Source of the DNA: Luteimonas huabeiensis HB2
Lineage (GTDB): Bacteria > Pseudomonadota > Gammaproteobacteria > Xanthomonadales > Xanthomonadaceae
Length of the DNA: 64,000 nucleotides
Reading direction: 5' to 3'
Assembly (NCBI RefSeq): GCF_000559025.1
Contig: NZ_JAAN01000030.1
Span: 1-64,000, forward strand
Part shown: piece after piece, positions 12,492-58,950 of the stretch
Numbering within the stretch: the first letter of the stretch is position 1
Layout: the number at the start of each line of letters is the position of its first letter
Notes under the pieces: model-generated
The model's database searches: none
Told to the model about the DNA's origin: nothing
The model's input: only the letters and a program-made list of their open reading frames with translations
Translations under genes and position numbers: made by a program

Positions 12492-12702
12492 ACTGTATCG
12501 ATACTCGGCGAACGTGCCCTCATCCGGCGCTGCGCGCCACCTTCTCCCGCTTGCGGGAGAAGGAACAACGTGGGCCCGCTTGCGGGAGAAGGGACGGCAC
12601 CCGCTTGCGGGAGAGGGACGACGCGGTCCCGGTGGCGGAGATGACATGACCCAACGTGCGGAAGCCGGGACAGCTTCGGCGCTACGGGTCGAATGCGGAT
12701 AC
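12492..12702. repeat. composite hairpin-repeat element, copy 2
   Basis: Lies between the convergent serine hydrolase and glutathione reductase genes. It starts ACTGTATCGATACTC right after the hydrolase TAG, has the core CCCTCATCCGGCGCTGC, and three GCTTGCGGGAGA(A)GGG units (about 12548-12618). It ends with CAGCTTCGGCGCTACGGGTC, then GAATGCGGATAC. The ends are imperfect inverted repeats of each other (GTATC...CTCG against GTATC...TTCG on the other strand). Confidence 0.75.
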
Positions 12703-30489: not shown

Positions 30490-32304
30490 TTACTCGCCTG
30501 CGGTCGCCGCCGTGGCGGTCGGAGCGGGCAACGCACCGGATCGAGTCACCCGGGTGGGCCTGGCCAGCGAGTCGAAGCAGTACGTATCCGCGGAACCGCA
30601 TCCCCGATCGACAGACCAGACGAAACTCCGACCCTGCTGCTCCACCCGCTCTTCGATCAGCGGGCGGACATAGGTGCTGAATACCGCGTCGGATCGCCCA
30701 TGCGGGCTTCTTCCCAGCCTAGGACTATAAGCCTGCCCATCGGCATGGTTGTATCGACGGTATACGCTTTTCAATACATTACCTGGGCCGTAACCAACAT
30801 CATAGCGAAGCAGCTGCCCCTCGTTGTAGAGATAACTATTCCCGAATTCGTATCTCTCCCATGTCCCATCGGGCGACACCACCTCGGCAACGCGCCTGCC
30901 TACGCAATCCGAAACACAGATAGGTTCCAAGCAGTCCAGGGACTGGCAGATGGGCTTGGTCTGGCCCGGCCGGTACAGCCAGCTCCCGCCACCAGTGAAG
31001 GTGTAGGACCATTCGCCGCGACCCAGCCCAGCCCCCTCGATCACCTTCGACTTCGGCACCCAGGACCACCAGACAGCGGGAATGACCAGATAATCGTCCT
31101 GCTGATTGATCACCATTCCCGGCGGTTTCAAAGCCTCCGAATAATTTCCACAGATGATTGGAACATTGGTTCGCCCCATCTGCCCCAAACCCACCACAAA
31201 GGTGCCTTTCGCTCCCGACGGATGGGTAACGACACCCACCACGTTCTGCTCGCGAGCGATAGGCATAGAAGTGCACATCCTCATGTCATCCGAAACAGAA
31301 GGAATATCCAAACTCGCCAAACCTGAAAACTCATAGCTCCACGACGCGCCATCCGGCAACGCAACTCTCGAAAGCGAAATCGACGACCCTCTCGGATACG
31401 GCATCTCAAAGCGAGTATATGAATAGGTCCAAACCCGAGATCCATCCGACACGGAGGATATATAGCCATCCTGATTGTAAGCGAAATCCAGCCTGCGACC
31501 ATCGCTGGCGACTATCGAATCGACTTTGACAGGCCGATTGTAAGCATTCGAGTACGAGTACTGGACCCAATTTCCGAAACGATCCTCGACTCGAGTGGCA
31601 TATAGACTATTCTTTTTTCTTATCAATCTTGCATCTGGGGCCCCCACCGTCGGAATACTTAATCCGTCTTCGTAATATTGGGACAGATGATCGAACCAAT
31701 ATCTTGTGCCATCGCTCGCCACCGCCAAGAATCCTTGCCCTGCGCCATTGCGTATTGACTCGAGACAACTGAAGTAAGTGTTCCCCGGAGTTACCCATAG
31801 ATACCCCCTCCCATCCTGAGGGGATGGCCTGGGCGAATCGACCCGCAGCATAGGGCCGCCTCCATCCATATCAGAATAATTGCCACTCCAATAGTCTTCA
31901 GGATTGATCAAATTCCGAGGGATTGGAGGCGTCTCCTTCGTGCATCGATCCGGATGCCAGTCCGGACCGAACGTACCGCTGACATTTGGAATATTTATAT
32001 CCCAATCGGCGAACGCATGATCGTTAATCGCCCTGCGATCATTACTGGCAGCTGCAAACCTCCTTCCGACACCAACCGGAGGACCGGAGCCGGGAATGTG
32101 GACATCGGTTACCGAGAAGGACAGCACGCCACTATAAAAGTCGACACTATCCCCAAAAATAGAATCTCCGCTAAGCGGACTGATATGACTTCTCGATGAA
32201 GCAGAGGCAGCATAGTTCTCCCAAGGCGCCAGCCCCTCTTGAGCAAGAACTGCGTCCGCCAGAACCAACAAGAGCAGCACAGACAAACGCCTTAACAAAA
32301 CCAT
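30490..32304 (-). CDS. exported Rhs/YD-type amino-terminal module (split Rhs, piece A)
   Basis: 604 aa with a Sec signal (SVLLLLVLADAVLAQ). The mature start, SPLSGDSIFGDSVDFYSGVL, then SFSVTDVHIPGSGPPVGVGR, is the standard beginning of Xanthomonadaceae YD-repeat wall/Rhs proteins. The middle is a beta-rich region with tyrosine/aspartate repeats (DRFGNWVQYSYSNAYNRP, DGRRLDFAYNQDGY). The end, FDSLARPTRVTRS, is where such proteins normally run on into WVLGQ-type YD repeats. Here the chain stops after a short Ala/Thr tail, and the continuing sequence is found as the start of piece B, 2-6 kb upstream in transcription. G+C is well below the chromosome except in the last 80 bases. The leader GGGGAAGG before its ATG matches that of piece B. 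Confidence 0.8.
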   Translation of the reverse strand: MVLLRRLSVLLLLVLADAVLAQEGLAPWENYAASASSRSHISPLSGDSIFGDSVDFYSGVLSFSVTDVHIPGSGPPVGVGRRFAAASNDRRAINDHAFADWDINIPNVSGTFGPDWHPDRCTKETPPIPRNLINPEDYWSGNYSDMDGGGPMLRVDSPRPSPQDGRGYLWVTPGNTYFSCLESIRNGAGQGFLAVASDGTRYWFDHLSQYYEDGLSIPTVGAPDARLIRKKNSLYATRVEDRFGNWVQYSYSNAYNRPVKVDSIVASDGRRLDFAYNQDGYISSVSDGSRVWTYSYTRFEMPYPRGSSISLSRVALPDGASWSYEFSGLASLDIPSVSDDMRMCTSMPIAREQNVVGVVTHPSGAKGTFVVGLGQMGRTNVPIICGNYSEALKPPGMVINQQDDYLVIPAVWWSWVPKSKVIEGAGLGRGEWSYTFTGGGSWLYRPGQTKPICQSLDCLEPICVSDCVGRRVAEVVSPDGTWERYEFGNSYLYNEGQLLRYDVGYGPGNVLKSVYRRYNHADGQAYSPRLGRSPHGRSDAVFSTYVRPLIEERVEQQGRSFVWSVDRGCGSADTYCFDSLARPTRVTRSGALPAPTATAATAGE

Positions 32305-32397
32305 CGCCCTTCCCCATTTGATCTACGCCTTACTGCCAACAATCGGACTCACGCATCTGATTCAACAGCACCAATTCCGCACTCACCCACAGAGACA

Positions 32398-32566
32398 AAG
32401 GACCACCTGATTAGTACGATCTTTCAGCCTCCCTTCTCCCGCGTGCGGGAGAAGGTGCCCGGAGGGCGGATGAGGGGCTGCTTTGCCCTCACCCCACCCC
32501 TCTCCCGCATGCGGGAGAGGGGACGAAATCGAGTTGCTGAAGGTTCGTGCTAATCAGGAAGGACCA
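32398..32566. mobile_element. MITE-like element with 22-bp inverted ends and 8-bp target duplication (repeat copy 3)
   Basis: The element proper is 32406-32558 (153 bp). Its left end, CCTGATTAGTACGATCTTTC + AG, and right end (read on the other strand, CCTGATTAGCACGAACCTTC + AG) match at 19 of 22 positions. Direct repeats AAGGACCA at 32398-32405 and 32559-32566 flank it exactly, a perfect 8-bp target-site duplication. The interior carries two hairpins of the window's repeat family (CTCCCGCGTGCGGGAG, CTCCCGCATGCGGGAG) around GGCGGATGAGGGG. It encodes no protein. The rest of the 32305-32637 gap shows no gene. Confidence 0.8.
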
Positions 32567-32637
32567 AAGGCAATACATCCAATCCACCATTAGGGCTCAG
32601 CCGGCACGCCCGGATGAAGGATCCTCGAACATGACTG

Positions 32638-33186
32638 TCAATTGCCCTCCCCTTGAAGATCATCGACATCAACACGAATATCATCCACGCTACCCACATA
32701 CTCTCGCGGCAATGCCGCCTTTACCGTTATCGGCCAAAGCAGATCACCCAAACGGTCATTTTCTTCAATATTATAATCATTAGCTCGAAACACCCCCCCC
32801 AGCCTCACCGTCCGATTTCCGTACTTAGAAAAAATATGGACCAACTGATCCCTTGTCCCCCGCAACCTAACCGACCTTCCGTGTTGCATATAGAGGTAAT
32901 CCTGCTCGCTAGCGAAAAGAGCTACCTGCCCATCATCGACTGCCAGATACCCTAGAATCCAAAGCTCCTTTCCGTCCGCCGCGAAAGGTGATGACGCCAA
33001 GCGCACGAAATCGGTTGGGCAATACTGATCCCGCGCCAGGGACAGTCCACATACGTGACCAGCCAACTCCCTGCGAGCGGTAGAATCCTCCATGCCCGAA
33101 ATCGCGCCCCCCTCTCTTTCACCAGCGCAGCCGGTAATTACAGAAGATAGACATATGACAGTGAAAAAATATATTGAAACCTTCAT
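32638..33186 (-). CDS. lipoprotein, candidate immunity protein for the Rhs tip
   Basis: 182 aa. An N-terminal SIYFFTVICLSSVITGC is a lipoprotein signal (lipid on C20), so the protein sits in the periplasmic face of a membrane. The remainder has no recognised domain; it is mixed alpha/beta in character with an acidic C-terminus (DDIRVDVDDLQGEG). Its ATG overlaps the last base of the stop of piece C (TGATG), so the two are translated together. A small A+T-rich gene joined directly to the 3' end of an Rhs-tip gene is the classical position of an immunity gene, and a lipid anchor would suit a toxin acting in the periplasm. A GTG three bases upstream is an alternative start. Confidence 0.7.
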   Translation of the reverse strand: MKVSIYFFTVICLSSVITGCAGEREGGAISGMEDSTARRELAGHVCGLSLARDQYCPTDFVRLASSPFAADGKELWILGYLAVDDGQVALFASEQDYLYMQHGRSVRLRGTRDQLVHIFSKYGNRTVRLGGVFRANDYNIEENDRLGDLLWPITVKAALPREYVGSVDDIRVDVDDLQGEGN

Positions 33187-34190
33187 CACTTACCAAGCCT
33201 CGGCACTCTAGTTACTGGATTAACAATACCGACCCCATTAAATCTGTAGAGGCCAGTTGGATCAGACACGTAGTGCACAGGAGCGCGAGTCGACCTGAAC
33301 CAATCGATGTCGGACGCACTGAATGGACGGTAGCCGTCAGGACTACTGCTAACCACAGGATGGGTATGATGTGTTGGGGTCGCCCCACCCCCAGCGAGGA
33401 CGGTGTACCCCAACCCGGAATTTGAAAATACTCGACCAACTCGCACATCAACTATGTAATAGCCAGCACCCAGCCCACCATCAAAATTGCTCAGAATTTC
33501 AACCCCAAACCGCTCCGATATTGGCTGAAATACATGATCTGCGGTTTGGGCGGCCGAGTCATAGGTTTTATGCCTTATCTCCTTAACTTTATCCGAGACA
33601 GACCGTACAACGGAGCTTGCCGCGGCATACCTTTCCGACGCGCTCCCAGCGTTCTTGTAGTGATCAAGTGCAGATTGTGCTGTAGACGCACTTCCTCCGG
33701 CATCTGAATCCAAAGGGCTACGGACACTAGTCCTTAGAAGATTCAACGAGTTTCTTCCTGTGCATAGCGCCATTATCCTGGTCCCGGTACACGCCAGCCT
33801 ACCGTCCGGGTCCAAAAATTTATAAGGGCTGCTGCTAGCATACCGATATCGATTGAATTGTCCCACCGGGCCGCCCAGCGCAGTGACCGGATCCGCGGAA
33901 AGGAACAATCCGATACCGGGATCGTAATAGCGCTGCTGCATATATACCATGCCAGTAGCGGCGTCCTGCACATGCCCGGTATATCCCGGCCCGTCCTGCA
34001 ATCCGGGAGCAAGCTGCTGCCCATAGGGCTCATACTCCCTCCGCTCCAGGACGGTACGACTCGCGTCCGTGACAGCCACCACGCTGCCTAGCGTATCGGT
34101 GTGGATGTACTTCACTCTGGTCTGAGCGTGTGATGCAGTGCTCACGAGAAGAAGCGAGATCGCCCAGATCGATTTGCGAGCGTGCGCCAT
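33186..34190 (-). CDS. short exported Rhs core protein with JAB/DUF4329-like tip (split Rhs, piece C)
   Basis: 334 aa. A Sec signal (IWAISLLLVSTASHAQ) leads straight into the Rhs-associated core: YIHTDTLGSVVAVTD, REYEPYGQQL, GYTGHVQDAATGMVYMQQRY, GLFLSADPVTA and YKFLDPDG (ends about residue 130). The last 200 residues are the variable tip. It holds H275-T-H277-P and S291-x-x-D294 (FSASD), the HxH...SxxD pattern of JAB/JAMM metalloproteases and DUF4329 domains, with E227 or E231 as possible upstream glutamates. The ending HYVSDPTGLYRF is also DUF4329-like. G+C falls within the tip. The next gene overlaps its stop. A GTG at 34193 is an alternative start. Confidence 0.75.
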   Translation of the reverse strand: MAHARKSIWAISLLLVSTASHAQTRVKYIHTDTLGSVVAVTDASRTVLERREYEPYGQQLAPGLQDGPGYTGHVQDAATGMVYMQQRYYDPGIGLFLSADPVTALGGPVGQFNRYRYASSSPYKFLDPDGRLACTGTRIMALCTGRNSLNLLRTSVRSPLDSDAGGSASTAQSALDHYKNAGSASERYAAASSVVRSVSDKVKEIRHKTYDSAAQTADHVFQPISERFGVEILSNFDGGLGAGYYIVDVRVGRVFSNSGLGYTVLAGGGATPTHHTHPVVSSSPDGYRPFSASDIDWFRSTRAPVHYVSDPTGLYRFNGVGIVNPVTRVPRLGK

Positions 34191-34202
34191 CACTTGCCCC
34201 CG

Positions 34203-37200
34203 TCAGTTGATCGACCGTGGGATGTCCACGATCCGCTCCGGCGAGTACGCGCTGCAGCTAGCCGCGCCGCACGCCTTCACGCGGTAGCGATACCGGCCGT
34301 GAACAGACACCCGAAGTTCGACGCTGGTGCTCGGCGCGTCATGAACGGTGCCCCACGGAAAGTCGTTCCACTTCTGCTGGAGCTCGTATCGCGTCGCCCC
34401 GGCAACGCTGGTCCAGCTGACATTGAATGTGCTGTCCATGGATGCCGTAGCAGGCGCGCTCAATGTCGGCACCGGCAGCGGGAGACTCACCTGGGTGCGC
34501 ATGATCGCGGAGTACGCCGAGCAGCCACCCGCATTGCATGCGCGGGCCCGATAGTCGTAGGCCCCCGGTGTCTGGGCGTCGCGGGTATGGCTGGTCGCAG
34601 AGGAGCTTTGGATGACGCCCCAGGCGGCGGTCCCTTTTCGCTCCTCCAGTTCGTAGTGCGTCGCACTTGCCACCGCACTCCATGTCACGACATAGGTGCC
34701 GGTGGTGTTGCTGGCTGGCGTCGTCAGTTGGGGGGCGCTGGATGGAGGCCGCAGGACCTGGGTGGTCCGAAGGGCCGACCAACCGCCGCAGCCTCCTGTA
34801 TTGCAGGCCCGCGCCCGGTAGCTCCAAGCCCCCGTGGCCTTGCCGCTGACTGCCTTGCTGGTTCCCGGCCCGTCATGGATCGTGCTCCAGCTTCCGCTAT
34901 TGAACTGCTCTTGCAATTCGTACTTCGTGGCGCTGGCCACGGACGTCCAAGTCACCGTATAGCCGCCGCTGTTGTTGCTGGCCGGCGTGGTCACCGTGGG
35001 GGCGCTGGCCGGAGGGTGAACCACACTCACGCTCGCGGTCCCGGACCATGCGCCGCATCCTGCTGTATTGCAAGCCCTGACGCGATAACTCCATGTTCCG
35101 GCGCCTCTGCCGCTGACCGCTTTGCTCGTTGCGGCGCCGTTGTGAATCACGGTCCAGCTACCGTTGTTGTGCCGCTCCTCCAGCTCATAGCGGGCCGAAC
35201 CGCTGACGCCTGTCCACGACACGGTATAGCTGCCATTGTTGCTCGTGGCAGGCACGGTCAAAGCGGGCGCCCCACCTGGCGGGTGGATCACGTTGACCGA
35301 CGAGACCGCCGACCAGCCGCCGCATCCGGCGGCATTGCATGCCCGCACTTGATAGCTCCAGGTCCCAGCCGCCTTGCCGCTCAGCGCCTTGCTGGTGGCT
35401 GCCGCATCGTGGATGGTGCTCCACCCGCCCGTACCCTGCCGCTCCTGCAGTTGATAGGTGGCGGCCGCAGCCACGCCGGTCCAGGTGATGGTGTATGCGC
35501 CATTCAATCCGGTGGCAGGCACCGACAACGCTGGCGCCGCGCCAGGCGGCAGTTGCACCGTCGTCTCCGCGACCGGGCTCCAGTTGCCGCAAGCGCTCGT
35601 ACTGCAGGCGCGCACCTGATACCCCCAGGTGCCGGCCGCCTTGCCGCTAAGCGATACCTGGGTCCTGGCGGCGTTATGGATCGTCGCCCAGGCGCCGCCA
35701 TCGACCCGTTCCCGCAGCTCGTAGCGGTTCGCTAGCGCTGCGCTGGTCCAGCTCACCGTATAGGCGCCGGTCGCGCTGTAGCCCGGGACGGTCAAGGCCG
35801 GCGTAGAGAGGGCGATCGGATCCTCCAGTTGGGCGATCAGGCTGCCCTCCAAGTGGATGTACTCCGTGGTCCGGCCCGCCCGTTCGTCGCGTTGATACCT
35901 CAATACGCCATCCTGGCCATAGACCGAGTAAATCGCCCCACCGCCCTGGCGGGTCGCTTTCACGCGGCGGCCATGGCCGTCGTAGAGATAGCTTTCCTGG
36001 CCGACAACGCTGCGCAAGCGGTTGCCGTAGTCGAACTGGTAGCTGCGCCCGGCATGGGTCTTGAGATTGCCCTGGGCGTCATAGGTCAACGAGGCGACCG
36101 TCGTCCCTGCGCTGGTCACCAGATCGAGCCGGTTGCGGGTGTCGTAGACGTAGGCGTGATTGCGCTGCTTCGGGCCCGCCGTCAGCTGCACACCGGTCAG
36201 ATTGTCCAGTACGTCATAGCCGTAGGTCGCGGTGCCGAACATCGGCGAGACCGTCCGTGTCAGCCGGTCCAGGCCGTCATAAGCCATGGTGCGGTCCCCG
36301 CGGCCACCCGACAGGCCGTCGCTGATCGCCGCGACGTTGCCGTGGCTGTCGTAATCCACGCTGTCGTCGTGTACAGCCGTGCCGCCGTAGGCGTCGCGAC
36401 TACGCTCCGGCAATCCGCGCGCGTTCTGGGTGAACGTACGGACGATGCCGTTGCCGTAGGTGAACTGCTTGACCGCCCCATTGGGGAAGTAACTCACGCC
36501 GGAGGCATGAACGCCCACCCGGGTCGGCTGGCCCAGGGCGTTGGGTTCCTGGTCCACCGATTCGCCGCCCGGCAAGGTCAGCGTGGCGAGGGCGCCGTTG
36601 GCGTTGTAGCCGTAGCCGATCGCCCACTGATGGGCGCCGACGCTCAACGCCTCTCCCGTAGGCAGCCGCCGGCGGTTGTAGGTGTAAGCGGTGCTGACGA
36701 CGTCCGCGCCGCCATTGTCGGCGGCGACCGAAGCCAGCCGGCCGTCCGGGTAATAGCCGTAGACCGTGTTGCCGAGATTGTCGGGAAAGGCCAGCGACAG
36801 GACCCGGTTGCGCGCGTCGTAGCTGCGCACTGTGCGCTCGGCAACCGGAACGTCGCCGGTATTGCACGCCGCGCCCGTCTGTGTGGCACCCGACTTGCTC
36901 CAGACCAGGTTCCCCGCCTCATCGTAGGCCATGATCGTGGCGCCTGTCTCCGGCTCCACCGACTTGCACAGTTGTTGATGAGCGTCGTAGACGTAACGAC
37001 GCGTCAACGAATGGGTCCCGGTGTTGTTGCGGCGGGTAATGGAAACCGGCTTGCCGAACGCATCGCGAGCGATATCGGTATACGCGCCGTTCGGATGCCA
37101 GATCTCGACTGGCCAGTCGTAGCTCGGCTGGTCGAACGCCTGATACCAAGTCCGGGTCTGTTCGCCCTTCGGGCTGGTGACGAGCGTGTAGTAACCGTCG

Positions 37201-38069
37201 GCATTGCCCGCATAGGCCGTGGTCGTGGTCAGCAGCCCCAGCTCGCTGTCCTGGCTGACCGAGGTCGGCCGGCCCAGGGCGTCGTACTCGGTCCAGGTGC
37301 CGGTGTTGGGCGTGCCGCTGGCGCTGGGGTAGGAGGCGAAGGTCACCCGGCCTTCGTGGTCGAAGGCTTGGCGGATGAAGCGCTGGGTGCCGGCCACGTT
37401 GCCGTTGTCGTACTCGCGCACCAGCACCGGGCGCCACAGGGCGTCGAGGTAGGTGATCTTGCGCCGCTGGCCGGTACTCTCGCTGTGCTGCCAGTGTCCG
37501 GCAGGCAGGCCATAGGCGGCGGCGCCCGCACGCACGAAGCTGAAGGTGGTGTCGTGCCAGGCCACGCTGTCGCCGGTCGGATACTGGATACGGGTAATGC
37601 GCCCCATCGCATCGTGCTGGTAGTTCGTGGCATAGCCGTTCTCGTCGGTGACCCGGGTGATCCAGCCCGCGTCGTTGACCACAGCGGACTGCGTTGCGCC
37701 GGACGGGCTCTCCGGTGTCGCGGGATACCGGATCGTCTGCGGAATGCCGCGCTTCCAGTTGGACAGCGTGGTGACGTTGCCGCGGCCGTCGGCCACGGTG
37801 GCGACGGTGCCGTCGGGGTGGTAGGTCAGGGTCTGCGCGGTGCGCCCGAACTCGCGGATGGTCCTGGGCTGCGCGCGGCTGTCGTAGAGCGTCTCCGAGG
37901 CGATGATGCCGTTCACTGTCAGCTTCGACGGCTGGCCGAGCACCCACAGCGACAGGTTGTCGTGGTACTCGATCGTTTCGGTCTTGGTGTAGGTCTGTGC
38001 CTGTGCCTGTGCAGCCAGCGGCAGCAGACAGGCGCCCAGCCACAGTCGTCGTGTCCTGCTTCCGATCAT
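34203..38069 (-). CDS. exported YD-repeat (Rhs) protein with six C-terminal FN3-like repeats (split Rhs, piece B)
   Basis: 1288 aa. The signal peptide is RLWLGACLLPLAAQAQAQ. Residues 25-750 are YD repeats, beginning TIEYHDNLSLWVLGQPSKLT and including YDARNRVLSLAFPDNLGN, GYDVLDNLTGVQLTAG and the late QESYLYDGHGRRVKATR, GRTTEYIHLEGSLIAQLED. In intact homologues the last string is followed by an Rhs core; here six fibronectin-III-like repeats follow (about residues 757-1285) and the core is in piece C, which starts 12 bases downstream. GGGGAAGG lies 2 bases before the ATG. A start 57 bases upstream (38126) would put 19 hydrophilic residues before the signal. It would act at or outside the outer membrane as the shell of a toxin or an adhesive protein. 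Confidence 0.8.
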   Translation of the reverse strand: MIGSRTRRLWLGACLLPLAAQAQAQTYTKTETIEYHDNLSLWVLGQPSKLTVNGIIASETLYDSRAQPRTIREFGRTAQTLTYHPDGTVATVADGRGNVTTLSNWKRGIPQTIRYPATPESPSGATQSAVVNDAGWITRVTDENGYATNYQHDAMGRITRIQYPTGDSVAWHDTTFSFVRAGAAAYGLPAGHWQHSESTGQRRKITYLDALWRPVLVREYDNGNVAGTQRFIRQAFDHEGRVTFASYPSASGTPNTGTWTEYDALGRPTSVSQDSELGLLTTTTAYAGNADGYYTLVTSPKGEQTRTWYQAFDQPSYDWPVEIWHPNGAYTDIARDAFGKPVSITRRNNTGTHSLTRRYVYDAHQQLCKSVEPETGATIMAYDEAGNLVWSKSGATQTGAACNTGDVPVAERTVRSYDARNRVLSLAFPDNLGNTVYGYYPDGRLASVAADNGGADVVSTAYTYNRRRLPTGEALSVGAHQWAIGYGYNANGALATLTLPGGESVDQEPNALGQPTRVGVHASGVSYFPNGAVKQFTYGNGIVRTFTQNARGLPERSRDAYGGTAVHDDSVDYDSHGNVAAISDGLSGGRGDRTMAYDGLDRLTRTVSPMFGTATYGYDVLDNLTGVQLTAGPKQRNHAYVYDTRNRLDLVTSAGTTVASLTYDAQGNLKTHAGRSYQFDYGNRLRSVVGQESYLYDGHGRRVKATRQGGGAIYSVYGQDGVLRYQRDERAGRTTEYIHLEGSLIAQLEDPIALSTPALTVPGYSATGAYTVSWTSAALANRYELRERVDGGAWATIHNAARTQVSLSGKAAGTWGYQVRACSTSACGNWSPVAETTVQLPPGAAPALSVPATGLNGAYTITWTGVAAAATYQLQERQGTGGWSTIHDAAATSKALSGKAAGTWSYQVRACNAAGCGGWSAVSSVNVIHPPGGAPALTVPATSNNGSYTVSWTGVSGSARYELEERHNNGSWTVIHNGAATSKAVSGRGAGTWSYRVRACNTAGCGAWSGTASVSVVHPPASAPTVTTPASNNSGGYTVTWTSVASATKYELQEQFNSGSWSTIHDGPGTSKAVSGKATGAWSYRARACNTGGCGGWSALRTTQVLRPPSSAPQLTTPASNTTGTYVVTWSAVASATHYELEERKGTAAWGVIQSSSATSHTRDAQTPGAYDYRARACNAGGCSAYSAIMRTQVSLPLPVPTLSAPATASMDSTFNVSWTSVAGATRYELQQKWNDFPWGTVHDAPSTSVELRVSVHGRYRYRVKACGAASCSAYSPERIVDIPRSIN
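34220..35800 (-). repeat. six tandem FN3-like coding repeats, about 265 bp each
   Basis: Within piece B, units recur every 88 codons. Each has a Pro-rich opening (APALTVPAT or APQLTTPAS), [YF]xVxWTxVAxAxxYELxER, a W-x-x-IH segment, TSKAxSGKxxGTWSYxVRACN and GCGxWS. Units 2-5 are closest to each other; unit 6 is the most diverged. Two cysteines per unit (ACN..GC) could form a disulfide in the periplasm. Confidence 0.8.
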
Positions 38070-38530
38070 GTCCTTCCCCAATGCGACGATGTGCGCGAGC
38101 TCTCGCGCCGGGTTGGCATTGCGCATGCCCCGCCGGCGGACTCGCCCTGCCTCTTACCACCGATGCCCCTTTGCGCGGACGCGAACGCCCGTCACCAGGC
38201 GTCGGCCAGCGCTCACGCAGCTCGACGACCCGGCGCGGCCCGCAGGACGGATTCGGTGGATCGATCAGATCACGGCCCTATGGGCCGGAAACGTATCGCC
38301 TCATGCACTCCCCCTGAGTTCCTTGGCAATATCCCTGGCCAGCAACGTAGCAGATTATTTTGGCGTTGAGTAGCCGGGACTCGGTGCACCTCAGAATCCG
38401 ATATTTTACGCATTCGCCCCACGAAAATCGCCGTCGGTCACGGCAATGCGCACTCGACGCCGCCTAATCTGGGTTGGTCGAGGCGGCCGGAAACCGGCCG
38501 CCTCTCGCAACTGCAGCTTATCGGCCCGCT
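38070..38530. other. non-coding stretch upstream of the split-Rhs genes
   Basis: No credible gene is seen in these 460 bases. The segment 38340-38420 is A+T-rich relative to its surroundings and contains, on the minus strand, TAAAAT and AAAATAATC, possible -10 sequences for the Rhs transcript that would give a leader of about 330 bases. The only clear structure is the hairpin at 38480-38504. Confidence 0.4.
38480..38504 (-). terminator. perfect 11-bp inverted repeat downstream of hemJ
   Basis: GAGGCGGCCGG-AAA-CCGGCCGCCTC, 27 bases after the hemJ stop on the minus strand. The stem is very stable, but no T-run follows in either direction, so it may act as a transcript-end stabiliser or a rho-assisted stop instead of a classic intrinsic terminator. 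Confidence 0.45.
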
Positions 38531-53927: not shown

Positions 53928-55262
53928 TCACACCGCGTCCGACAGCGAGGTGAAGGTGAAGTCGCGCAGGCGCATCGGCGGCAGCATCATCACGAAGCTC
54001 GATTCGTCGCCGGCCACGCGCACCGGCCGCCCCAGCTCGTCGATGTTGTTGAGCATGATCACGGGCGATTCGTTGAAGCGGAAGTTCTTGACCGGGTGCG
54101 CGATGCGGCCGTTCTCGATGTAGAAGGTGCCGTCGCGGGTCAGGCCGGTCAGCAGCACGGTCTGCGGATCGACCATGCGGATGTACCAGGTGCGGGTGAC
54201 CAGGATGCCGCGCTCGGTGCCGGCGACCAGTTCGGCGGTGGACTTGTCGCCGCCGGCCATGATCAGGTTGCCGGGCCGGCCGACCGCGCGCTGGCCCTGC
54301 TGCTCGGCCCAGTAGCGCGAATAGTTCAGCGCGGCGATCTTGCCGTCCTCGATCAGCGCCATGCGCTCGCGCGGCAGGCCGTCCTGGTCCCAGGGCAGCA
54401 CCGGCGCCTCCGGGTGCCAGGGGTCGGCGTGGATGTTGACCCGCGGGTCGTAGACCTGCTCGCCGAGCTTGTTGCCGCCGCCGCGCTTGGACAGGAAGCT
54501 GCGGCCTTCGTCGGCACTGCGCGCGTCGAAGTAGCGCATCATGAACGACACCAGCCCCGCCACCGCCGCCGGCTCCAGGATCACGGTGTACTTGCCCGGC
54601 TCCAGCGCCTTGGCCTCGACCGACTCGCTGGCCTTGCGCATGGCGACCTGGATGTCGCGGCCGGCGTCGAAATCGCTGGCGTCCTTGAGGCTGCGCCCGA
54701 CCCAGCCGGAGCCGCGGCCGTCGGCGGTGCGCACGGTGCAGGTGTAGTTGAAGTTGGTGCCGCGCTGGTAGCCGAAGTTGCCGTTGGAGTTGGCGAACGC
54801 GGTGAAGCTCTGGCCGTCGAGCAGGAAGCCGGCGGCCACCAGGTTCTCGCGGCGGCACGGCAGGATCGAGTCGGCGGCCACCTTGGCGCGGAACTCGGGA
54901 TCGATGGCGGCGGTGGATTCGCTGAAGGTGGCGCTCGGCCGGTAGGTCTGCTTGCCGATGGCCGGCATGAACTCCGGATTCTCCGGCGCCAGCCGGGCGA
55001 GGTCCTCGGCCCGGCGCACTACCCGCTCCAGCGAGGCGTCGTCGAATTCGTTGATCGAGGCGGTGCCCACGCGGCGGCCGAAGGCGACCTGCACGTCGAG
55101 CGAGACGTCGTCGACCACGCCGCTGGTGGAGACGTTGTTGAGCGCGAAGCGGATGTTGCCGTCCACCGAGCCGTTCAGGGTGGCGGTGCACTCGTCGGCG
55201 GTGGACAGCGCGACGACCTTCTCCAGGAGGGTGCGCGCCTGCTCTTCGGTCAAAATGGTCAT
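53928..55262 (-). CDS. TldE/PmbA-type subunit of the TldD-TldE protease
   Basis: 444 aa. It follows the Tld fold without the zinc motif: NVSTSGVVDDVSLDVQVAFG, RVGTASINEFDDASLERVVR, then LEPGKYTVILEPAAVAGLVS where TldD has the HExxxH helix, and FNESPVIMLNNIDELGRPVR near the end. It should pair with one of the TldD proteins encoded just upstream to degrade unfolded or modified peptides. It has no signal peptide (starts TILTEEQARTLLEKVV), and the 18-base gap to the previous stop leaves no room for one. This contrasts with its Tat-bearing partners. Confidence 0.88.
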   Translation of the reverse strand: MTILTEEQARTLLEKVVALSTADECTATLNGSVDGNIRFALNNVSTSGVVDDVSLDVQVAFGRRVGTASINEFDDASLERVVRRAEDLARLAPENPEFMPAIGKQTYRPSATFSESTAAIDPEFRAKVAADSILPCRRENLVAAGFLLDGQSFTAFANSNGNFGYQRGTNFNYTCTVRTADGRGSGWVGRSLKDASDFDAGRDIQVAMRKASESVEAKALEPGKYTVILEPAAVAGLVSFMMRYFDARSADEGRSFLSKRGGGNKLGEQVYDPRVNIHADPWHPEAPVLPWDQDGLPRERMALIEDGKIAALNYSRYWAEQQGQRAVGRPGNLIMAGGDKSTAELVAGTERGILVTRTWYIRMVDPQTVLLTGLTRDGTFYIENGRIAHPVKNFRFNESPVIMLNNIDELGRPVRVAGDESSFVMMLPPMRLRDFTFTSLSDAV

Positions 55263-55280
55263 GTCCTGCGGATCTCCTGG

Positions 55281-56915
55281 TCAGCCGAGCGAGCGGGCGG
55301 TGTTGATGACGTTGATGCCGTCGAAGCGGGCGGTGGCCGAGCCGTGCGAGACCGCCGAGACCTGGCTGGGCTGGCCCTTGCCGTCGAAGAACGAACCGCC
55401 CAGGCGGTAGTCGCTTTCGTCGCAGATCGCGCTGCACGCGTTCCAGAATTCCGGCGTGCGGATCTGGTAGGCGACGTCCTCGATCATGCGGGTGATCTCG
55501 CCGTTCTTGATCTCGTAGAACAGCTGCCCGCCGAACTGCGCGTTGTAGCGCTGCTGGTCGATCGAGAACGAGCCGTCGCCGACGATGTAGATGCCGTTCT
55601 CGACGTCGCGGATCATCTGCGCCACCGACAACGGCGTGCGGCCGGCCGCCAGCGAGACGTTGGGCATGCGCTGGAACTGCACGCTCGACCAGGAGTCGGC
55701 GTAGCAGCAGCCGTCGGATTCGCTCTTGCCCAGGATGTGGGCCTGGTCGCGGATGGTCTGGTAGTCCACCAGGCGGCCGTTGCTGATCAGGTCCCAGCGC
55801 TTGGTGGCCACGCCCTCGTCGTCGTAGCCCACCGCGCCCAGGCTGCCGGGCTGGGTCTTGTCGGCGAAGATGTTGACCAGCTCGCTGCCGTACTGGAAGC
55901 GCTCTTCGCGCTTGTCCAGCGTGGCGAAGCTGGTGCCGGCGTAGTTGGCCTCGTAACCCAGCACGCGGTCCAGTTCCAGCGGGTGGCCGACCGATTCGTG
56001 GATGGTCAGCCAGGTGTGCGAGGGATCGAGCACGAGGTCGTAGCGGCCGGGCTCGACCGAGGGCGCGGCGAGCTTCTCGCGCGCCTGCCGGGCCGCGGCC
56101 ACCGCGTCCTCGCGCATGTCGTAGGACAGGCCGTAGTTGACCACCCCGTTGGGCGAGACGAACTTCTGCGCCGGGTCGCCGTCGAGGTACTCGTAGCCCA
56201 TGCCCATCGGCGCCGACAGGCCCTCGCGGGTGCGGAACTTGCCGCTGGCCTTGTCGATGGCGGTGACCGTCATCGGCGCCCAGATGCGGTGCACGTCCTG
56301 GTCGATGTAGGAGCCGTCGGTGCTGGCGAAGTACTTCTGCTCGTTGACCAGGAACAGCGTGGAATTGACGAAGTCGGCGCCGGCCTGCAGCGCCGCGGCG
56401 TTGACGCCCAGCAGCAGATCGACCTTGTCCTTGAGCGGGACTTCCATGGCGTTCTTGCGGATCGGCGTGCGCCAGGAGACTTCGCCCACGCCGCGCACCG
56501 GCGCCAGCCGCACCGGCTCGGTCTGGATCTTCGCGTTCGCCTTGGCGATGGCCGCGGCCTGCCGCGCGGCCTGCGCCACGCCGTCCTCGGTCAGGGTGTT
56601 GGTGGCGGCGAAGCCCCAGGCGCCGTCGGCGATCACCCGCACGCCCACGCCGGTGGATTCGGCGTTGACCACGTTCTGCACCTTGTCCTCGCGCGTCATC
56701 ACGAACTGCCGCAGGTAGCGGCCGATGCGCACGTCGCAGTAGCTGGCGCCGGCGCCGGTGGCGGCGCCGAGCGCGGCATCGGCCAGCCGCTTCTTCACCG
56801 CGACGTCGAGGGTGGTGAGCAGTTCTTCGGCGGCGATCGCCCGCCCGAACAGGGACGGCACCATCAGGCCGCCCAGACCGAGGCCGCCGAGGGCCAGGAA
56901 GTCGCGTCGTTGCAA
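55281..56915 (-). CDS. tldD: Tat-exported TldD-type metalloprotease, copy 1
   Basis: 544 aa starting at TTG 56915. The N-terminus (M)QRRDFLALGGLGLGGLMVPS is a twin-arginine signal. The zinc motif is intact in LTIHESVGHPLELDRVLGYE (HExxxH). In E. coli TldD a Cys in a C-terminal CGK-GQ motif is the third ligand; the matching region here reads GGSFFDGKGQPSQVSAVSHG with no Cys, although ACSAIC lies about 15 residues before. It is about three-quarters identical to copy 2 by eye. It is followed after 18 bases by the TldE gene. Confidence 0.88.
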   Translation of the reverse strand: MQRRDFLALGGLGLGGLMVPSLFGRAIAAEELLTTLDVAVKKRLADAALGAATGAGASYCDVRIGRYLRQFVMTREDKVQNVVNAESTGVGVRVIADGAWGFAATNTLTEDGVAQAARQAAAIAKANAKIQTEPVRLAPVRGVGEVSWRTPIRKNAMEVPLKDKVDLLLGVNAAALQAGADFVNSTLFLVNEQKYFASTDGSYIDQDVHRIWAPMTVTAIDKASGKFRTREGLSAPMGMGYEYLDGDPAQKFVSPNGVVNYGLSYDMREDAVAAARQAREKLAAPSVEPGRYDLVLDPSHTWLTIHESVGHPLELDRVLGYEANYAGTSFATLDKREERFQYGSELVNIFADKTQPGSLGAVGYDDEGVATKRWDLISNGRLVDYQTIRDQAHILGKSESDGCCYADSWSSVQFQRMPNVSLAAGRTPLSVAQMIRDVENGIYIVGDGSFSIDQQRYNAQFGGQLFYEIKNGEITRMIEDVAYQIRTPEFWNACSAICDESDYRLGGSFFDGKGQPSQVSAVSHGSATARFDGINVINTARSLG

Positions 56916-57060
56916 GGCAATCTCTCCCCGTGAATGCGACCGCGGCGGCTGCCGCGGCGGGCTGGAACAGCGCTGGTGTCTCGTTCCGGCGTCCCTGCCT
57001 GCGACCGTCCCGATTCTTGCCGCCGCGCGAACGGCGGGTCAAATGACTTTTGGCATAGAC

Positions 57061-57152
57061 AGGGGTCGGGGGGCGGAGGCCAGGGGTCGGGGAAAAGCGC
57101 TTTCGCTGTGGCTTATCCCTGGTCCCTGACCTCTGGCCCCTGGCCCCCGCCT
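57061..57152. repeat. long imperfect inverted repeat between the two tldD copies
   Basis: Left arm 57061-57093 (AGGGGTCGGGGGGCGGAGGC, then CAGGGGTCGGGGA) and right arm 57115-57152 (ATCCCTGGTCCCTGACCTCT, then GGCCCCTGGCCCCCGCCT) are largely complementary. They are joined by a loop with AAAGCGCTTT. The sequence starts right at the tldD copy 2 stop and may serve as its transcript end. The CCCTGGCCCC motif is unlike the other repeat family in this window. Confidence 0.6.
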
Positions 57153-58780
57153 CAAAGGCTGCGCGCGGTGTTGATGATGTTGATGCCGTCGAAGCGGGCG
57201 GTCGCCGAGCCGTGCGAGACCGCGGAGACCTGGCTGGGCTGGCCCTTGCCGTCGAAGAACGAGCCGCCCAGGCGGAAGTCGCGCGCGTCGCAGATCGCGC
57301 TGCAGGCGTTCCAGAACTCCGGCGTGCGGATCTGGTAGGCGGCGTTCTCGACCTGGCCGACGATCTCGCCGTTCTTGATCTCGTAGAACAGCTGCCCGCC
57401 GAACTGGGCGTTGTAGCGCTGCTGGTCGATCGAGTAGGAACCGCGCCCGTGCACGTACAGGCCGCGATCGACGCCGGCGATCAGCTCCGCCACCGTCAGC
57501 GGCGCGCGCCCCGGCGCGAGCGAAACGTTGGGCATGCGCTGGAACTGCACGCTGGACCAGGAGTCGGCGTAGCTGCAGCCGTCGGACTCGTGCTTGCCGA
57601 GGATGTGCGCCTGGTCGCGGGTGGCCTGGTAGTCGACCAGGATGCCGTCGCGCACCAGGTCCCAGCGCTTGGCCGGCACGCCCTCGTCGTCGTAGCCCAC
57701 CGCGCCCAGGCTGCCGGGCTGGATGCGGTCGGCGAAGAAGTGGACGCGATCGCTGCCCCAGCGGAACTCCCCGCGCTTGTCCAGGGTGGCGAAGCTGGTG
57801 CCGGCGTAATTGGCTTCGAAGCCCAGCACGCGGTCGAGTTCCAGCGGATGGCCGACGTTCTCGTGGATGGTCAGGAACAGGTTGGAGGGATCGGTCACCA
57901 GGTCGTAGCGGCCCGGCTTCACCGATGGCGCGCTCAGCTTCTCGCGCGCCTGCCGGGCCGCGGCCACCGCGTCCTCGCGCATGTCGTAGCGATTGCCGTA
58001 GGCCACCACCCCACCCGGCAGCGCGAAGCGCTGGGCGGCATCGGGTTCGAGGTATTCGTAGCCCAGGCCCATCGGCGCGGAGAGCCCGTCGCGGGTACGG
58101 AACCGGCCGCTGGCCTTGTCCACCGCGGTCACGGTGAACGGCGCCCAGATGCGGTGGATGTCCTGGTCGACGTAGGCGCCGTCGGTGCTGGCGAAGTACT
58201 TCTGCTCGTTGACCACGAACAGGCGCGAATCGACGAAGTCGGCGCCCGCCGCCATCGCCGCGGCGTTGACATCCAGCAGCAGCGCGACCTTCTCCTCCAC
58301 CGGCACTTCCATGCCGTTGCGGCGGATCGGCGTGCGCCAGGCGACCTCGCCCAGCGCGGGCGCCGGCGCCAGCCGCACCGGGGCCTCCTGCAGGCGGGCG
58401 TTGGCGCGCGCGATGGCCGCGGCCTGCCGCGCGGCGCCGGCCACGCCGTCGGTGGTGAGCGTATTGGTGGCGGCGAAGCCCCACGCCCCGTCCACGATCA
58501 CCCGCACGCCGGCGCCGGCCGATTCGCCGTTGACCACGTTCTCGATCTTGTCCTCGCGGGTCATCACGTACTGGCGCAGGTAGCGGCCGATACGCACGTC
58601 GCAATAGCTCGCCCCGGCCGCGCGCGCGGCCTCCAGCGCGGCGTCGGCGAGCGGCTTCTTCAGCGCGGCATCGAGCGGCAGGGCCAGCACCTCGGCCGCG
58701 ACCGCGCGGCCGAACCAGGCGGGCAGCAGCAGGCCGCCGGCGCCGAGGCCACCGAGGGCGAGCACGTCGCGTCGTTTCAA
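57152..58780 (-). CDS. Tat-exported TldD-type metalloprotease, copy 2
   Basis: 542 aa. The start is taken as TTG 58780. It lies 6 bases after GGAGGA and gives (M)KRRDVLALGGLGAGGLLLPA, which aligns residue for residue with copy 1, itself a TTG start. A GTG at 58801 would overlap that ribosome site. The zinc motif IHENVGHPLELDRVLGFE is intact, and the C-terminal GGSFFDGKGQPSQVSAVSHG again lacks the CGK cysteine. Differences from copy 1 cluster in the first 130 residues and in the segment after KRGEFRWGSDRVHFF. It is transcribed first in the cluster, with 236 bases to copy 1. Confidence 0.87.
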   Translation of the reverse strand: MKRRDVLALGGLGAGGLLLPAWFGRAVAAEVLALPLDAALKKPLADAALEAARAAGASYCDVRIGRYLRQYVMTREDKIENVVNGESAGAGVRVIVDGAWGFAATNTLTTDGVAGAARQAAAIARANARLQEAPVRLAPAPALGEVAWRTPIRRNGMEVPVEEKVALLLDVNAAAMAAGADFVDSRLFVVNEQKYFASTDGAYVDQDIHRIWAPFTVTAVDKASGRFRTRDGLSAPMGLGYEYLEPDAAQRFALPGGVVAYGNRYDMREDAVAAARQAREKLSAPSVKPGRYDLVTDPSNLFLTIHENVGHPLELDRVLGFEANYAGTSFATLDKRGEFRWGSDRVHFFADRIQPGSLGAVGYDDEGVPAKRWDLVRDGILVDYQATRDQAHILGKHESDGCSYADSWSSVQFQRMPNVSLAPGRAPLTVAELIAGVDRGLYVHGRGSYSIDQQRYNAQFGGQLFYEIKNGEIVGQVENAAYQIRTPEFWNACSAICDARDFRLGGSFFDGKGQPSQVSAVSHGSATARFDGINIINTARSL

Positions 58781-58950
58781 GAGCGTTCCTCCGGCAGGCA
58801 CCGCGCAGGCGGTGCGGTCGAATCGCCGGCAGCACCGGCCCCGCCCGATTCTCTGCGGCCCCGGGCGGAGCGGTCAAAGGCCGATGGTCATGGGCGCTCG
58901 CAAGGTGGCGCGGCGGCGCCGAACGGCATCCGGCCGCTGCGCCGGCGCGC

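What the first reader, a model, noticed from the sequence alone, without database searches (positions are those of the whole stretch)
30490..38069. Rhs/YD-repeat system split into three separately exported polypeptides
Seen: three minus-strand genes each begin with their own Sec signal peptide and together carry what is usually one chain. These are an N-terminal module ending FDSLARPTRVTRS, a YD-repeat body beginning EYHDNLSLWVLGQ and ending EYIHLEGSLIAQLED, and an Rhs core beginning KYIHTDTLGSVVAVTD. Known: in many bacteria these regions are continuous and form a closed cocoon around a toxin. Inference: the breaks fall exactly at module borders and each piece has gained an export signal, so this looks like a working multi-subunit shell assembled outside the cytoplasm, not decay.
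Basis: partly seen in the sequence, partly recalled or inferred. Interest (0 to 1): 0.75.

Follow-up and report, generated by a model that had tools for sequence, protein, structure and literature searches.

The report
Toxin capsule exported in separate pieces
Some bacteria related to Xanthomonas encode the hollow protein capsule that normally carries a toxin as one chain (an Rhs protein) in two or three separately exported pieces, with the toxin riding on a small interchangeable end piece; this suggests a capsule put together after export and loaded from a set of toxin cartridges.

Summary
Three minus-strand genes, each with its own Sec-type signal peptide, carry the N-terminal third (A), the YD-repeat body (B) and the Rhs core plus toxin tail (C) of an Rhs cocoon. 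Relatives in five genera split at one or both of the same borders. No B-FN3 chain runs on into C (0 of 40 frames; 46 frames run B-C). All 35 complete shells are followed by a C gene, 29 within 149 nt (19 of the 35 were found through C; a 36th has none). Of 31 frames holding A alone, 25 stop 3-15 residues past the border; six are broken earlier. Seven loci have all pieces separate; three, in three genera, share the window's permuted order. Split pieces show purifying selection, and both borders fall in turns of a predicted cocoon. Most likely the pieces fold and join in the periplasm, C acting as lid plus warhead. Assembly is inferred, not shown, and this window's A need not serve this B. Seven literature searches found no description. 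New variant of a known kind.

The parts
34203..38069 (-). Gene B: Sec-type signal peptide (from ATG 38069), YD-repeat shell body, six FN3-like repeats
   Evidence: signal peptide rule
35832..37985 (-). B module: middle of the Rhs cocoon (PF05593 repeats)
34206..35831 (-). six FN3-like repeats (about 88 aa each) closing chain B where a fused homologue would run on into the Rhs core
   Evidence: ChitinaseA_N-type Pfam hits, FN3 chain 1wf5 E 0.0024
33186..34190 (-). Gene C: Sec-type signal peptide, Rhs-associated core, toxin tail; ATG 12 nt after B's stop
33795..34115 (-). C core: last part of the cocoon, with the Arg and two Asp expected of the Rhs autoprotease
33186..33794 (-). C toxin tail; HxHP...PFSxxD motif shared with two relatives, JAB/JAMM-like by motif only (recalled)
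   Evidence: no Pfam match in the tail at its cut-off
32638..33189 (-). 183-aa lipoprotein, overlaps the stop of C; probable periplasmic immunity protein
   Evidence: no relative in the other 100 genomes
32434..32519 (.). dispersed inverted-repeat element between lipoprotein and A
30490..32304 (-). Gene A: Sec-type signal peptide and about the N-terminal third of the Rhs cocoon, stopping 16 aa after the A/B border

Best explanation
A split Rhs toxin of the Lysobacteraceae. Chain A (N-terminal third of the cocoon) and chain B (YD body plus an FN3-repeat tail), or in many relatives a single A-B-FN3 chain, form an open capsule. Chain C, usually started at or near the capsule's stop codon, supplies the last turns of the cocoon, the autoprotease residues and a variable toxin: a lid with the warhead attached. 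Each chain is sent through Sec with its own signal peptide, so it would fold and join the others in the periplasm by strand-to-strand complementation at the turns where the chain is cut; in this locus a lipoprotein made from the gene next to C would guard the envelope while toxin is outside the capsule. The cut lets one capsule be loaded from several C cassettes and lets the capsule carry an FN3 stalk, probably for anchoring or target binding. Shown: anatomy, recurrence, repeated breakpoints, gene coupling, selection on pieces, predicted fold. Inferred: assembly, its site, the role of FN3, toxin activity, immunity.
For: Same borders in many relatives. Of B frames that reach the end of the module, 40 end in FN3 (37 different B modules), 46 run on into C, 0 have both, 3 short fragments have neither. 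35 of 35 complete B-FN3 shells are followed on the same strand by a C gene; 16 of these came from the search with B and 19 from the scan with C, where a C is there by construction. In 29 the C module begins 59-149 nt after the stop, and in 20 (hand count) a start codon overlaps the stop by 4 bases. 25 of 31 A-only frames stop 3-15 aa past the border. On the B tree the A-B break needs at least 13 changes (10 without four B frames lacking a signal peptide) and the B-C break 5 (3 forced by starred branches). dN/dS is 0.11-0.34 in the 8 of 21 pairs with dS below 1, e.g. 0.11 at dS 0.27 for a split A in two species. Autoprotease residues R65, D78, D105 are invariant in 25 of 25 split cores (R-13-D as in BiTLP R2103/D2116, PMC13018210 Results part 1 read). 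A model: pLDDT 87, aligns with RhsP 149-475 (Z 17.5); fused homologue: pLDDT 84.5, both borders in turns between strands. 71 C tails fall in 36 clusters (3 of the tails are under 50 aa). One S. maltophilia shell has no C behind it but five C cassettes in front, two interrupted.
Against: No complex was modelled; the pieces could work apart. B and neighbouring C distances correlate less in split loci (r 0.46, 35 pairs) than in fused ones (0.77, 29), both above all 2000 shuffles, and shared species history is not removed. 44% of model residues are outside strands and helices, so a border in a turn is weak evidence. Exported immunity is not the rule: 32 of 72 genes behind stand-alone C and 21 of 45 behind fused C have a signal peptide or lipobox by a crude rule. 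In this window A and B differ in ancestry and base composition, and two other A|B loci of the same genome have A in front of B. Broken copies exist: 6 A-only and 9 B frames stop inside their module, 4 of 28 stand-alone B and 9 of 81 C frames fail the signal-peptide rule or are too short for it, two C in L245 have a stop in the core.
Confidence: 0.6

Rival explanations
1. The pieces no longer join. C is a small exported toxin that keeps the Rhs core only as a recombination handle or self-cleaving pro-domain, and A-B-FN3 is an exported surface adhesin.
For: C genes occur away from a shell in the stretches seen, some in arrays (L104, L105, L135-L137, L204, L205); weaker B-C correlation in split loci.
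Against: 35 of 35 complete shells lead into a C gene, most with coupled starts, though 19 were found through C and a 36th (L245) has none. By hand count over, all 14 of the 101 genomes in which I fetched a signal-peptide C also have a shell without C (13 complete, G041 cut by a contig end); weaker C hits were not fetched. Core identity 79% with the catalytic residues kept.
Confidence: 0.2
2. The two-piece system AB plus C works in relatives, but this window's A is a leftover: the A that belonged in front of B was lost and the downstream A is the head of a deleted neighbouring unit, so this locus is partial. (Not exclusive of the best explanation, which is about the family.)
For: A lies behind C and a dispersed repeat, ends against the tail of a plus-strand patatin-like gene, and differs from B in ancestry and GC3.
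Against: Same order B, C, A in Pseudoxanthomonas wuyuanensis (L162) and Xanthomonas melonis (L229), with open frames; the X. melonis genome gave one A, one B and one C match each. Window A is an intact 604-aa frame ending where other split A end.
Confidence: 0.3
3. Ordinary decay or assembly error of one Rhs gene.
For: Broken Rhs copies do occur in the sample, and contigs of this genome break inside other Rhs copies (L116-L118, L138).
Against: Repeated breakpoints, new signal peptides, coupled starts, selection, and the layout in a complete chromosome.
Confidence: 0.03

Closest known systems
Fused Sec-exported Rhs proteins of the same family (A-B-C in one chain, e.g. L173, L178, L190)
   Same: same three modules, same core, toxin end
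   Different: one chain, no FN3 repeats between B and C
TcB/TcC shell of ABC (Tc) toxins, e.g. YenB with YenC1-C3 (PMC11067744: Introduction and Discussion read)
   Same: cocoon from two chains; one B partner loaded with alternative C proteins, one from an orphan locus; self-cleavage; A here aligns with YenB residues 25-963 (Z 14.6)
   Different: cut at other places: YenC2 spans model residues 618-1180, the cuts here fall at 340-346 and 1079-1083; C here holds only about the last 110 residues of the shell; each piece has a signal peptide; no Pfam beta-propeller in A; TcA not searched
T6SS Rhs effectors (RhsP, RhsA, Tse5, Tse15)
   Same: cocoon fold (predicted here), DPxG motif
   Different: single chain, no Sec signal peptide (recalled); no PAAR domain found here
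Bacterial teneurin-like proteins (PMC13018210: abstract, Results part 1 and passages seen)
   Same: exported YD shell with toxin end and two-Asp-one-Arg cleavage site
   Different: single chain with FN-plug and NHL domains; window B matches the teneurin shell model only at E 0.079
Orphan Rhs/CDI toxin cassettes (PMC3482391, passages seen)
   Same: spare C-terminal cassettes
   Different: known orphans lack export signals and await recombination (recalled); these C have their own signal peptide and could act without recombination

Membership tests
Rhs/YD-repeat polymorphic toxins | YD/RHS repeats | tested here: met
   PF05593 5e-26, TIGR01643 3e-11 in B
Rhs/YD-repeat polymorphic toxins | Rhs-associated core with R/D/D self-cleavage residues | tested here: met
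   TIGR03696 9e-20; invariant R, D, D in 25 of 25 split cores; cleavage itself not tested
Rhs/YD-repeat polymorphic toxins | cocoon fold | tested here: met
   by prediction only: window A Z up to 18.9, a fused A-B-C homologue Z up to 30.0 to Rhs, Tc and teneurin shells; window B and C not modelled
Rhs/YD-repeat polymorphic toxins | variable C-terminal toxin | tested here: met
   71 tails in 36 clusters; toxicity not tested
Rhs/YD-repeat polymorphic toxins | cognate immunity gene next to the toxin | tested here: inconclusive
   an open frame of 55 aa or more starts within 150 nt behind 71 of 72 stand-alone C frames; function untested
Rhs/YD-repeat polymorphic toxins | shell in one chain (usual, not required: Tc toxins split it) | tested here: not met
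ABC (Tc) toxin BC subunits | chain break at the TcB/TcC position | tested here: not met
ABC (Tc) toxin BC subunits | SpvB-like N-terminus | tested here: inconclusive
   A model aligns with SpvB 6p0x (Z 11.3); no Pfam match
ABC (Tc) toxin BC subunits | partner TcA translocator | not tested
   no search for TcA was made
T6SS Rhs effectors | PAAR or VgrG N-terminal part, no Sec signal | tested here: not met
   no PAAR or VgrG match in A, B or C; signal peptides present by rule
Teneurin-like proteins | FN-plug, NHL and teneurin YD shell in one chain | tested here: not met
   only TEN_YD-shell at E 0.079, below its cut-off

The most novel reading that the evidence does not exclude
A toxin capsule built in trans in the bacterial envelope: shell chains cross the inner membrane unfolded and separately, snap together through edge strands, and are closed by a third chain that is lid, protease and warhead at once; one shell is loaded from a bank of interchangeable, ready-to-export toxin lids, so a cell makes a mixed arsenal without recombination, and the freed end of the shell grows an FN3 stalk for targeting.
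Probability: 0.4. Interest if true: 0.82.

Novelty: new variant of a known kind. Interest (0 to 1): 0.63.

Why it matters
Rhs cocoons are thought to close around their toxin as one chain folds; a naturally cut version gives a handle on how the shell closes and loads, since C can be added late or left out. It would also show that orphan Rhs tips can be live ammunition and not only spare parts for recombination, as shown for YenC3 in a Tc toxin, and could explain short 'RHS core' genes in Xanthomonas relatives.

Tried and rejected
Decay or assembly error: rejected for the family (see rivals), although broken copies exist: 6 of 31 A-only frames and 9 B frames stop inside their module. FN3 repeats as an insert inside an intact chain: no B-FN3-C chain among the frames examined. 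Exported immunity as a mark of split loci: no difference, 32 of 72 against 21 of 45. Toxin type: no match at cut-off in Pfam or NCBIfam; two relatives of the tail, L223 and L206; the one further genome of 397 that matched holds the L206 gene again. JAB/JAMM-like is by motif, recalled. Immunity candidate: no relative in 100 other genomes. A: no PDB sequence match. Promoters and terminators: no more than in shuffles. Print: seven searches, of which I saw listings, found no split, separately exported Rhs shell; the library lacks most subscription papers. PMC13340143 (passages) describes a PAAR-Rhs of Stenotrophomonas rhizophila, a different kind.
Full report
What is there. On the minus strand the window holds, in the direction of transcription, gene B (34203..38126, likely from ATG 38069), gene C (33186..34193, likely from ATG 34190), a lipoprotein gene overlapping the end of C (32638..33189), a dispersed inverted repeat (32434-32519; its longer form occurs five times in the genome) and gene A (30490..32304), which ends against a plus-strand patatin-like gene (name recalled). 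A, B and C each begin with a Sec-type signal peptide, and A+B+C in that order make up one Rhs chain. B closes with six FN3-like repeats; C ends in a 202-aa tail without known family.

Relatives. With profiles for A, B, C and the FN3 unit I mapped 61 sources (the window and 60 stretches, four of them from its own genome) and then 78 named loci found by a scan of 84,980 species with 25 split cores, which kept the best 80 of 527 matches. Layouts seen: A-B-C in one chain without FN3; A-B-FN3 followed by C; A, then B-FN3, then C; A, then B-C; A-FN3, then B-C (L230, Lysobacter arseniciresistens); lone C genes, sometimes in arrays; and broken copies. Splits at one or both borders occur in Luteimonas, Lysobacter, Stenotrophomonas, Pseudoxanthomonas, Xanthomonas and Thermomonas. 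Seven loci have all three pieces separate: in chain order L126 (Luteimonas endophytica), L128, L131 (L. granuli, complete chromosome) and L183 (Pseudoxanthomonas beigongshangi, whose C runs over two frames); in permuted order B, C, A the window, L162 (P. wuyuanensis) and L229 (Xanthomonas melonis). In X. melonis the downstream A is the only A found, beside one B and one C match, and all three frames are open.

The breaks. Of 31 frames holding A alone, 25 stop 3-15 residues after the border, often ...RPTxVTxSSAPxP-stop; the other six are cut earlier, inside the module; two more A frames run into FN3. Of B frames reaching the module's end, 40 end in FN3 (37 different), 46 run on into C, none has both, and three short fragments have neither. 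35 of 35 complete B-FN3 shells lead into a C gene on the same strand. Sixteen of these were found with B, so the C is not there by choice; 19 come from the scan with C, where it is. In 29 the C module starts 59-149 nt after the stop, and in 20 (hand count) a start codon overlaps the stop by 4 bases; the other six (582-3237 nt) are one clade with a single short FN3 unit. A 36th shell, read later in Stenotrophomonas maltophilia SJTL3, has no C behind it; five C cassettes, two interrupted by a stop, precede it, so any C it uses must come from elsewhere in the genome. My signal-peptide rule is met by 72 of 81 stand-alone C, 24 of 28 stand-alone B and 66 of 67 leading A, against 0 of 54 and 5 of 47 internal junctions. 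In the 8 of 21 pairs with dS below 1, dN/dS is 0.11-0.34; for the window's own A the synonymous changes are saturated, so only its open frame and conserved residues speak. On the B tree the A-B break needs 13 changes, 10 if four B frames without a signal peptide are left out, and the B-C break 5, of which 3 are forced by well supported branches.

Fold. Window A, predicted from 46 rows (pLDDT 87.2, pTM 0.87), matches about the first third of T6SS Rhs cocoons (Salmonella bongori Rhs 360-679, Z 18.9; RhsP 149-475, Z 17.5) and also TcB (YenB 25-963, Z 14.6). A fused homologue from L. endophytica, 1195 residues from mid-A to the core (pLDDT 84.5), matches Rhs, Tc and teneurin shells (Z up to 30.0); the A/B border lies in the turn 340-346 and the B/C border in the turn 1079-1083, while the TcB/TcC break maps near 618. 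C equals the last part of the solved shells up to the cleavage site and holds all three catalytic residues with the spacing R-13-D described for a bacterial teneurin.

Cargo and immunity. 71 C tails fall in 36 clusters, three tails being under 50 aa. The window's tail has two relatives here (L223 and L206; the one genome hit is the L206 gene); they share HxHP-x(n)-PFSxxD, like JAB/JAMM metallopeptidases (recalled). Zhang et al. 2012 list a lipobox-bearing immunity family, Imm65, for a JAB toxin (passage), which fits the lipoprotein here without proving it. Across the sample fewer than half of the genes behind C look exported, in split and fused loci alike.

Reading. I take this as a split, Sec-exported Rhs toxin in which C is lid plus warhead, probably assembled in the periplasm. 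The precedent is YenB, which pairs with three different C proteins, one from an orphan locus (PMC11067744). What is new is the pair of breakpoints, the export signal on every piece, the FN3 tail tied to the break, the permuted order and the spread over a family. Assembly, loading and the role of FN3 are inferred. For this window the weakest link is A, which may have another history than B.

Noticed in passing
window 32434-32519 and 12542-12615: Dispersed palindromic repeats CTCTCCCGCNNGCGGGAGA at 4 places in the window (7 matches over both strands, 0.2 expected); a longer form occurs 5 times in the genome, one copy between the lipoprotein and A.
   Followed up: partly
L116, L117, L118, L138 (own genome contigs C11, C14, C6, C40): Two more A|B loci of the same genome run into contig ends inside B, and two contigs end inside a C core: the stretch between seems not to be assembled, so their full layout is unknown.
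   Followed up: partly
L101, L102, L162, L183, L203, L229: A clade of shells with one short FN3 unit; in L162 and L229 frames of about 110-170 aa with signal-like starts lie between B and C.
   Followed up: no
L230 1675-5658 and L123 698-3637: A followed by FN3 repeats, with B (in L230 B-C) as a separate chain: FN3 arrays can also close A.
   Followed up: partly
L245 (G445:C1 1251549-1261099): Five C cassettes with similar signal peptides before one shell in Stenotrophomonas maltophilia SJTL3; two are interrupted by a stop at the same place in the core.
   Followed up: partly
window 53928-58801: Two neighbouring minus-strand frames of 544 and 549 aa look alike by eye, next to a 444-aa frame; they resemble a TldD/PmbA-type protease set (recalled).
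   Followed up: no
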